Assembly: GCA_010671905.1 (NCBI GenBank)
Contig: JAAHII010000001.1
Location: forward strand, 6,782,026 to 6,846,025
Length of the DNA stretch: 64,000 nucleotides
From: Leptolyngbya sp. SIOISBB
Lineage (GTDB): Bacteria > Cyanobacteriota > Cyanobacteriia > Phormidesmidales > Phormidesmidaceae
Reading direction: 5' to 3'
The notes beneath the pieces were generated by a model. It searched no databases. It was not told the DNA's origin and saw only the letters and a list, made by a program, of their open reading frames with translations. Below are positions 46,891 to 48,720 of the stretch, in pieces (within the stretch, counting starts at the first letter, position 1; every line of letters begins with the position of its first letter). The position numbers were made by a program, and so were the translations under genes.

Positions 46891-46987
46891 AATTATTGGG
46901 CATTCTGGAAAGATATTGGCATGTCGAACTACAATGCCTGACATAACAAGCCAACCTGAACCAGATCCTTAAACCTGGCCAGCTAAA

Positions 46988-47003
46988 GGTTGTCTAGACA
47001 ACC
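46988..47003. promoter_or_regulatory. 16-bp perfect palindrome upstream of the HetR homologue
   Basis: GGTTGTCTAGACAACC is a perfect palindrome ending 51 bases before the start codon. Its centre GTCTA recalls the GGGGTCTAACCCC core of the HetR target upstream of hetP, as I recall it. It may be an autoregulatory operator of this HetR-family protein. Confidence 0.5.
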
Positions 47004-47054: not shown

Positions 47055-48008
47055 GTGACAAAATTCGCGACGTCTTCTCAGGAAGTGTCTCCGCCAGGTG
47101 GAGACTATGACGAAATTATTGCCGATCTAAAAGTCAGTTCGGCTGACCGTATTTTGTTTTACCTAGCGATCAGCGTGATGAAGCTAGGTGGGCATCGCTA
47201 TGGTTCGTTTCTTGAGGCTGCCAATACGGCAGCTAAGCTAGCCATTTACTCTTCTTATCTAGAGCAGGGCAACAACATTCGTAAAACCAGCTTTTTGCAT
47301 CATGTCGAGCCGAAGCGGGTCAGGGCGATCGTCAAAGAAGTGGAATCCTTTAAGGCCGGTGGCCAATCACTCACTAGCCTCAGCGACCAGGAGCCTTATT
47401 ATCTGATTGGTCTACCGTTCCTCTGGCAAGAAAAATATCCTTGGAAACCAGGACAATGTCGTCTCAATCATCATCACCTCAGTGCTAAAGAGCAGGAAGC
47501 GTTGTATGCCCAACTGCCGACTGATTTACCCTCAGCGCGGTTTTTGGACATGCTGGAGTTTTTAGACCTGATCAAGCTACTGCACGAAAAATCCCAAGCC
47601 GAATATCCTCCCAACCGTCAGATGCCTTTGAGTGAAGCTTTGACTGAACACATTAAGTTTCGCTTGCTACACTCTGGCACCGTAACTCAAATCGACATTC
47701 CGTTCCTATCGATCCCAATTTTTGTGTTGACTCGTACCCATTACGCCCCCAAAGGTCAGCGGGAACGAGTCTTTACAATGATCGATGATTTAGCTCGTTT
47801 CGGTAAGCTCATGCAAGATTGGGTCGTAGAACAACCAGATGTGTTGCGCGGCCTCGAAGTTTTTGACGTTGCTCCCGAAAAACGGGAACAAGCCCTCGCC
47901 GAACTTGACGCTCTGCTCAAAGCTTGGGCTGACAAGTATCACCAAGATGGTGGCCACCCTATGATTTTGCAACTTGCCGCCGGTACTCGTGACCCTGGAG
48001 AAGCCTAA
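47055..48008 (+). CDS. hetR-like: divergent HetR-family transcription regulator
   Basis: 317 residues, similar over its length to HetR of Anabaena (RILFYLAISVMKLGGHRYGS, KYPWKPG, QMPLSEALTEHIKFRLLHSG, LLKAWADKYHQDGG). It has a 14-residue N-terminal extension. By my alignment Cys48 is replaced by Leu62, Ser152 by Met166 and Glu254 by Val269, while Ser179 (Ser193), Arg223 (Arg238), Glu253 (Glu268) and Asp256 (Asp271) are kept. These positions concern dimer stability, proposed autoproteolysis and PatS-pentapeptide binding in the Anabaena protein. Start: GTG 47055 with a very close AGGAG; no better start is available. No patS/patX-type frame was found next to it. Confidence 0.88.
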   Translation: MTKFATSSQEVSPPGGDYDEIIADLKVSSADRILFYLAISVMKLGGHRYGSFLEAANTAAKLAIYSSYLEQGNNIRKTSFLHHVEPKRVRAIVKEVESFKAGGQSLTSLSDQEPYYLIGLPFLWQEKYPWKPGQCRLNHHHLSAKEQEALYAQLPTDLPSARFLDMLEFLDLIKLLHEKSQAEYPPNRQMPLSEALTEHIKFRLLHSGTVTQIDIPFLSIPIFVLTRTHYAPKGQRERVFTMIDDLARFGKLMQDWVVEQPDVLRGLEVFDVAPEKREQALAELDALLKAWADKYHQDGGHPMILQLAAGTRDPGEA

Positions 48009-48132: not shown

Positions 48133-48720
48133 TCAAGAGATGCATCTGGATGGGACTGGAACGTCGTCGAACTTAAGGTGGTGAAGTAGCAGTCGAATCG
48201 AGTGAGCCAGCATTTCCACGGACTTCGAATAGCACAGCGTCTTGCGATGCCGGCGGGCCAGATCATTTTGGAGGCGTGTGTTTTCGCCTTCCACCCGAGT
48301 CATGTAAGTTTTGCTAATAATCTGAGCGCCCTCCGGAATGAAGCCCGGATAGACCGATCCCCCTAATGCCTCCGGCAACGCTACGCGAACGGTGACATAA
48401 AAATAGCATTGCCAGGTGGCAACCCGTTCCCAAAGAGGCCGAAAGGTTTCGGCACTATAGTCACCGAGAACCCCTACCCAAGATGCCCTGGCGGAAGTGA
48501 TCAACAGCCGTCCATAGCCAAATCCGGTTTGTCTTGGTGTGCGTTCCCTAACGCCATGCAACGACGCGGGGTTGCACCGCTTTATGAGCCGACAAAGGTT
48601 GCCAATTCGTCGAGCTCCCCGATCTCGGGGGTCGTGTCAGGGGCATAAGCTTCAGGCAGCAGGTTACCCACCTGTTTCACCCAGGTAATGACCGTTGTAT
48701 GATGCACTATACAAAAGTCA
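48133..48720 (-). pseudogene. IS1-family transposase remnant
   Basis: Fragments in different frames read as one decayed IS1-type transposase: an upstream piece VHHTTVITWVKQVGNLLPEA...IGELDELATFVGS ending at a TAA, then RIWLWTAVDHFRQGILG, then a third frame with GDYSAETFRPLWERVATW and the C-terminal RKTLCYSKSVEMLAHSIRLL. The dotted text marks a join between two stretches. At least three frame changes make it non-functional. The N-terminal zinc-ribbon part is not recognisable. Confidence 0.75.

What the first reader, a model, noticed from the sequence alone, without database searches (positions are those of the whole stretch)
47055..48008. Divergent HetR paralogue with altered regulatory positions
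The protein is a full-length HetR homologue, yet my alignment to the Anabaena sequence (from memory, numbering internally consistent) places Leu at Cys48, Met at Ser152 and Val at Glu254, while Ser179, Arg223, Glu253 and Asp256 are kept. A 14-residue N-terminal extension and a one-residue insertion near position 215 are also present. It could be a HetR-like regulator that has lost proposed autoproteolysis and altered PatS-type peptide recognition. No patS, patX or hetF is visible nearby.
Basis: partly seen in the sequence, partly recalled or inferred. Interest (0 to 1): 0.72.

Follow-up and report, generated by a model that had tools for sequence, protein, structure and literature searches.

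The report
Second, divergent HetR with intact peptide pocket
This filamentous cyanobacterium carries, besides a standard HetR regulator next to its peptide-signal gene patX, a second and long-separate HetR that still has almost the whole site that reads the signal peptide, so one peptide may steer two regulators.

Summary
Window 47055-48008 encodes a full-length 317-aa HetR-family protein with L, M and V at Anabaena positions 48, 152 and 254; S179, R223, E253 and D256 are kept. It is a paralogue: the same genome has a canonical HetR 4 Mb away, 49% identical, with a patX-like gene (four RG[ST]GR) just upstream. The window protein belongs to a separate group ('HetR2', my name) found in 41 of 63 genomes of its GTDB family, 40 of which also have canonical HetR, under strong purifying selection.
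Five of six PatS6-contact residues are kept, including E253, D270 and D278; published E254A lowers affinity 7.6-fold only (PMC4649674). E254 and S152 also vary in canonical, patX-linked HetRs. Loss of autoproteolysis is not supported. Most likely HetR2 is a second DNA-binding receptor for the same PatX peptide, with a weaker peptide clamp and altered DNA-side residues. That could explain why patX acts largely independently of hetR in Leptolyngbya BL0902, whose genome also holds this paralogue. Function is inferred, not shown.

The parts
47055..48008 (+). hetR2: HetR-family regulator without a linked patX, 317 aa, GTG start
47280..47324 (+). helix-turn-helix segment (Anabaena 62-76) with R62, H69, E71, K73, R74 kept, K76R; group-specific M63K and H66F
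   Evidence: contact residues from PMC4649674
47238..47240 (+). codon for L at Anabaena C48
47550..47552 (+). codon for M at Anabaena S152
47706..47708 (+). one-residue insertion shared by the group (L218, after Anabaena 203)
47757..47984 (+). HetR_C hood domain with the RG(S/T)GR pocket: R223 (codon 47766), E253, D256, D270, D278 kept, E254V
   Evidence: pocket from PMC4649674
47859..47861 (+). codon for V at Anabaena E254
46930..46938 (+). TACAATGCC, a possible -10 element, seen in 9 of the 17 hetR2 upstream stretches printed, all in the window's subclade; role not tested

Best explanation
It is a long-diverged HetR paralogue (HetR2), kept alongside the canonical patX-hetR1 pair. It most likely works as a HetR-type transcription factor: an intertwined dimer binding DNA through the HetR HTH and flap helix, and released from DNA by an RG(S/T)GR peptide in the hood pocket. 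Having no peptide gene of its own nearby, it would read the PatX peptide made at the hetR1 locus, with a weaker grip on the peptide's N-terminal amine (E254V), so at a higher peptide level, and on a target set shifted by group-specific changes at the DNA side. Shown: separate group, co-occurrence, purifying selection, kept pocket and DNA-contact residues, absence of a linked peptide gene. Inferred: DNA binding, peptide response, threshold and targets.
For: Second canonical HetR with a patX-like gene upstream in the same genome; no second PatX by homology in the genome (next hit E 0.66). Separate group: canonical HetRs including heterocyst formers are one group of 43 rows, 100/100, stem 0.69, excluding HetR2; HetR2 41 rows, SH-aLRT 92. 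41 of 63 family genomes have HetR2, 40 of those 41 also HetR1. HetR2 dN/dS about 0.02-0.10 in the 8 of 13 genome pairs with a dS value; HetR1 0.03-0.10 in 7 of 13. Of 45 HetR2-type rows, R223, E253 and D270 are kept in 45, D278 and D256 in 44; V254 in 44; R62 in 45, and H69, E71, K73, R74 in 44 of 44 with letters. RG[ST]GR within 1 kb upstream, same strand: HetR2 1 of 43 (L282, a 67-aa frame with one RGSGR, not shared by other HetR2 loci), HetR1 of this family 51 of 53. PMC11298460: in BL0902 patX effects are basically independent of hetR; G038, whose chromosome length equals BL0902's, has HetR1, HetR2 and HetR3.
Against: No experiment on any HetR2 was found. No canonical HetR site upstream of hetR2: GGGN5CCC in 4 of 44, shuffled mean 3.4; the two stricter cores in 0 of 44. 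The AlphaFold model is poor (pLDDT 61, pTM 0.48), so pocket geometry was not checked. The deepest members L080 and L153 are not firmly joined to HetR2, the remaining 19 rows have only 83/86, and the HetR2-like copy of another family (locus L218), counted among the 45 rows, falls outside the group.
Confidence: 0.5

Rival explanations
1. HetR2 has dropped peptide control: it binds DNA constitutively or answers to another ligand or a protein such as a HetL-type partner, which uses the same hood surface.
For: V254 in 44 of 45 HetR2-type rows; L255F and E229D in the hood are fixed too; no linked peptide gene. PMC7476756 passages: HetL and PatS share the HetR interface.
Against: E253, R223, D270 (45 of 45) and D278, D256 (44 of 45) are kept, hard to explain without a peptide or a mimic; E254A keeps a 91 nM Kd and DNA release (PMC4649674).
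Confidence: 0.22
2. HetR2 acts mainly through HetR1, as a heterodimer partner or competitor on the same sites.
For: 40 of 41 genomes with HetR2 also have HetR1; DNA-contact residues shared; HetR dimers are intertwined (PMC4649674).
Against: Own-genome HetR1 and HetR2 are only 45-54% identical by domain, so mixed folding of an intertwined dimer is uncertain; one genome (G050, 69% complete) shows HetR2 without HetR1.
Confidence: 0.18
3. It is the ordinary orthologous HetR of this lineage, merely diverged.
For: Full-length, same domains.
Against: A canonical HetR is present in the same genome; trees; NCBIfam HetR equivalog cut-off not reached, 365 of 489 bits.
Confidence: 0.02
4. A HetR that lost autoproteolysis through S152, so is a stable form.
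For: S152 is absent in 44 of 45 HetR2-type rows.
Against: S152 is A or G in 16 of 137 canonical rows too; the structural paper describes a DNA-binding protein with novel flap and hood folds (PMC4649674). The protease proposal itself is recalled, not read here.
Confidence: 0.03

Closest known systems
Canonical HetR (PDB 4hri/4yrv and 3qod; named in PMC4649674 as Anabaena and Fischerella HetR)
   Same: Domain order, 145 of 292 residues identical to Anabaena HetR, HTH contacts, 5 of 6 PatS6-contact residues
   Different: L48, M152, V254, one-residue insertion, A instead of S at 130, no linked patX, separate group
The three hetR-like ORFs of Leptolyngbya sp. BL0902 (PMC11298460; passages and one section read)
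   Same: G038 (chromosome 4,309,234 bp, as in the paper's table) holds one HetR1, one HetR2 and one HetR3
   Different: The paper counts three ORFs and deletes only the patX-linked one; the other two are not described in what I read
HetR3 (my name), another divergent HetR group in this family
   Same: HetR domains by alignment; E253, R223, D270, D278 kept in 6 of 6
   Different: T254, G or E at 256; 37-40% identical to the window protein in my alignment; in the loci looked at it lies in a conserved cluster with its own RG[ST]GR protein

Membership tests
HetR superfamily (Pfam Peptidase_S48 + HetR_C) | Both Pfam domains above cut-off, full length | tested here: met
   221.8 (cut-off 27) and 87.7 bits (cut-off 27)
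HetR equivalog (NCBIfam NF009718 / PRK13245) | Score above curated cut-off | tested here: not met
   364.9 bits, cut-off 489
Canonical HetR group (HetR1) | Placement with heterocyst-former and patX-linked HetRs | tested here: not met
   outside the 100/100 HetR1 group
Canonical HetR group (HetR1) | patX-type RG[ST]GR gene directly upstream (in this family of genomes; 1 kb rule fails for Nostocales HetR1) | tested here: not met
   HetR1 51 of 53; HetR2 1 of 43, that one a lone motif in an unconserved frame; none at the window gene
HetR mechanism | DNA-contact residues R62, H69, E71, K73, R74, K76 | tested here: met
   kept, K76R conservative
HetR mechanism | PatS6 pocket R223, E253, E254, D256, D270, D278 | tested here: inconclusive
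   five of six kept, E254V
HetR mechanism | DNA binding released by RG(S/T)GR peptide | not testable with these tools
   needs protein
Heterocyst-type HetR | Ser130 of the TSLTS motif | tested here: not met
   A130 in the window, P in 36 of 45 HetR2-type rows; motif from PMC6985446

The most novel reading that the evidence does not exclude
One peptide, two receptors: the patX product of the hetR1 locus controls both HetR1 and an ancient, unlinked HetR2 whose missing amine clamp makes it respond at a higher level or to a differently trimmed peptide, so non-heterocystous filaments read one signal at two thresholds and onto two gene sets. With HetR3 and its own RG[ST]GR protein, these cyanobacteria would run a small family of HetR-peptide circuits unrelated to nitrogen fixation.
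Probability: 0.3. Interest if true: 0.78.

Novelty: new variant of a known kind. Interest (0 to 1): 0.55.

Why it matters
What HetR and PatX do in filaments that never make heterocysts is called 'a mystery' in PMC11298460 (passage read). Deleting hetR in BL0902 did not remove patX's effects; a second HetR with a nearly intact peptide site, present in that same genome, is a concrete and testable reason. It would also show how a peptide-receptor pair diversified before or beside the heterocyst system.

Tried and rejected
A perfect 16-bp palindrome upstream (46988-47003) looked like an operator, but it is absent from the nearest relatives: dropped. HetR consensus sites upstream of hetR2: not above shuffles. 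Conserved operon: of 11 window neighbours tested, only the S9 peptidase upstream recurs, in the window's genus and one near genus (many loci hold only 1.5-6 kb of flank). Peptide gene near hetR2: RGxGR hits exist in some loci but in scattered frames, distances and letters. Structure: the AlphaFold monomer model is too weak to judge the pocket; no fold search was run. Not tested: hetF, hetZ, hetP, nif genes in this genome.

Counts after exclusions (recounted): 45 HetR2-type rows = 48 rows less L284 (repeat of L218) and the HetR3-like L141 and L190. 138 canonical rows = 142 less L285 (repeat), two fragments of L240 and the long-branch L118; five of the 138 (f11 copies, A254) fall outside the 43-row canonical group. 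Fixed differences used 136 and 44 rows. Class sample: 150 of 291 genomes match, with a capped list of places; I scored only 20 genomes with both profiles. Among copies whose two scores I saw outside the family, only the G225 copy fitted the HetR2 profile better (438 against 396 bits).

Literature: the searches listed no paper that I could see describing this group or the HetR3 cluster; I opened seven papers in part (passages or sections), and did not open the rest (for example PMC9284123, listed). The 2018 Elhai and Khudyakov PatX paper is recalled only and was not seen; it may mention extra HetRs.

Full report
Observation. The ORF at 47055-48008 is a full-length HetR-family protein. I add that D270, D278 and the DNA contacts R62, H69, E71, K73 and R74 are kept, that K76 is R, and that the insertion is L218, after Anabaena 203.

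Paralogue, not orthologue. The genome (8.34 Mb, 2 contigs) has a second HetR at G000:C1:2826436-2827320, 49% identical to the window protein and 72% to Anabaena HetR, with C48, S152 and E254. A 115-aa ORF with four RG[ST]GR motifs, PatX-like, ends about 0.5 kb before that match. In the GTDB family 60 of 63 genomes have a HetR-family match. With the residue classes, 41 of 63 carry the window type (one, G061, in broken frames) and 40 of the 41 also carry the canonical type; the exception, G050, is 69% complete. Named members of the window type include Halomicronema sp. CCY15110, Leptolyngbya sp. PCC 6406, Nodosilinea nodulosa PCC 7104 and Phormidium tenue FACHB-1052.

Tree. In 103 rows and 77 rows canonical HetRs, including Nostoc, Fischerella and Scytonema relatives, form one group (100/100, 43 rows) that excludes the window type. 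The window sits in a 9-row subclade with 100/100. Weaknesses: 19 HetR2 rows have 83/86, with two long-branched members (L080, L153) unresolved beside them; a HetR2-like copy from another family (locus L218: F48, E152, V254) and four f11 copies (C48, S152, A254) fall between HetR2 and HetR1. Rooted on HetR3, C48 and E254 could be gains in HetR1 rather than losses in HetR2; the root is uncertain and HetR3 branches are long.

Selection. In 13 genome pairs HetR2 identity ranges from above to below that of HetR1 (for example 93 against 86, 71 against 79, 59 against 71). HetR2 dN/dS is about 0.02-0.10 in the 8 pairs with a dS value, HetR1 0.03-0.10 in 7; the rest gave no dS. The gene is maintained.

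Peptide pocket. PMC4649674 (parts 1 and 2 of 5 of its text read; further passages) names R223, E253, E254, D256, D270 and D278. E253A, or D270A with D278A, abolish the response; E254A raises Kd from 12 to 91 nM and the peptide still releases DNA, because E254 and D256 hold the peptide's N-terminal amine. HetR2 keeps all but E254. Canonical HetRs with S at 254 stand beside patX genes with four to nine RGSGR repeats (L146-L149). So a changed 254 does not mean loss of the peptide response.

DNA side. Ten positions are at least 90% fixed to different residues in 136 HetR1 and 44 HetR2 rows: R29K, H35Y, M63K, H66F, R101Y, R188F, Y192H, R198Q, E229D, L255F. Positions 63 and 66 adjoin the HTH contacts and 188-198 lie in or beside what I take to be the DNA-touching flap helix; this grouping is post hoc and was not checked on coordinates. 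It suggests shifted DNA or partner preference.

No linked peptide gene. RG[ST]GR within 1 kb upstream on the same strand: 51 of 53 canonical loci of this family (at least 600 bp available; the two misses, L143 and L145, are second canonical copies), 1 of 43 HetR2 loci, and that one (L282) is a 67-aa frame with a single motif not shared by other HetR2 loci. Nostocales HetR1 loci also lack it within 1 kb, so absence of linkage alone does not show a different ligand. Second HetR copies elsewhere vary: five of seven f24 second copies read lack it, two have it. PatX has no second homologue in this genome.

Link to experiment. G038 has a chromosome of 4,309,234 bp, the length given for Leptolyngbya BL0902, so I take it to be that strain. 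It has HetR1 (with patX), HetR2 and HetR3. The BL0902 paper mentions three hetR-like ORFs, deleted only the patX-linked one, and found patX effects basically independent of hetR. HetR2 and HetR3, both with E253, R223, D270 and D278, are candidate alternative receptors. BL0902 has no nif cluster, so HetR2 is not tied to nitrogen fixation there.

Verdict. The finding is real and more than chance. It is a new, uncharacterised variant of a known kind as far as the searches show; the mechanism is well motivated but inferred.

Noticed in passing
L286-L294 (G009, G038, G003, G001, G062, G022, G034, G050, G040); e.g. L288:4859-11662: A conserved cluster in nine loci chosen because they hold the ~190-aa protein below: SepF-like protein, a ~155-aa protein weakly like DnaB_2 in one copy, an XRE-type regulator on the other strand and a ~350-aa unknown in 9 of 9, a NACHT NTPase in 8 of 9, and a divergent HetR (HetR3 type) in 7 of 9. 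In G009 the contig ends where HetR3 would lie. The own genome has no full-length homologue of the ~190-aa protein (one hit, E 2e-4).
   Followed up: partly
L254-L261, L263, L293:8055-8651, L294:6744-7382: The ~190-aa protein of that cluster (three copies scanned, no Pfam match) carries RG[ST]GR in 11 of 11 copies read, once in ten and twice in one, in an otherwise poorly conserved linker: a possible new RG(S/T)GR carrier beside PatS, PatX and HetN, and a candidate ligand for HetR3.
   Followed up: partly
G062:C133:45062-45964 (L190): A genome rated 100% complete whose only HetR match is HetR3-like (Y48, E152, T254), with the RGSGR protein 4.9 kb away.
   Followed up: no
G072, G105, G118, G128, G138 (f11); G112, G164, G172, G178, G183, G195, G230 (f24): Further HetR copies outside this family: five f11 copies with A254; seven f24 second copies, six with N256 and three with N278. 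RG[ST]GR within 1 kb upstream is lacking in five of the seven f24 second copies and in six of the seven f11 copies with enough sequence.
   Followed up: partly
48133-48561: IS1-type transposase piece (DDE_Tnp_IS1, 35.8 bits) directly downstream of hetR2.
   Followed up: no
46988-47003: Perfect 16-bp palindrome GGTTGTCTAGACAACC upstream of hetR2, not found in the near relatives read.
   Followed up: yes
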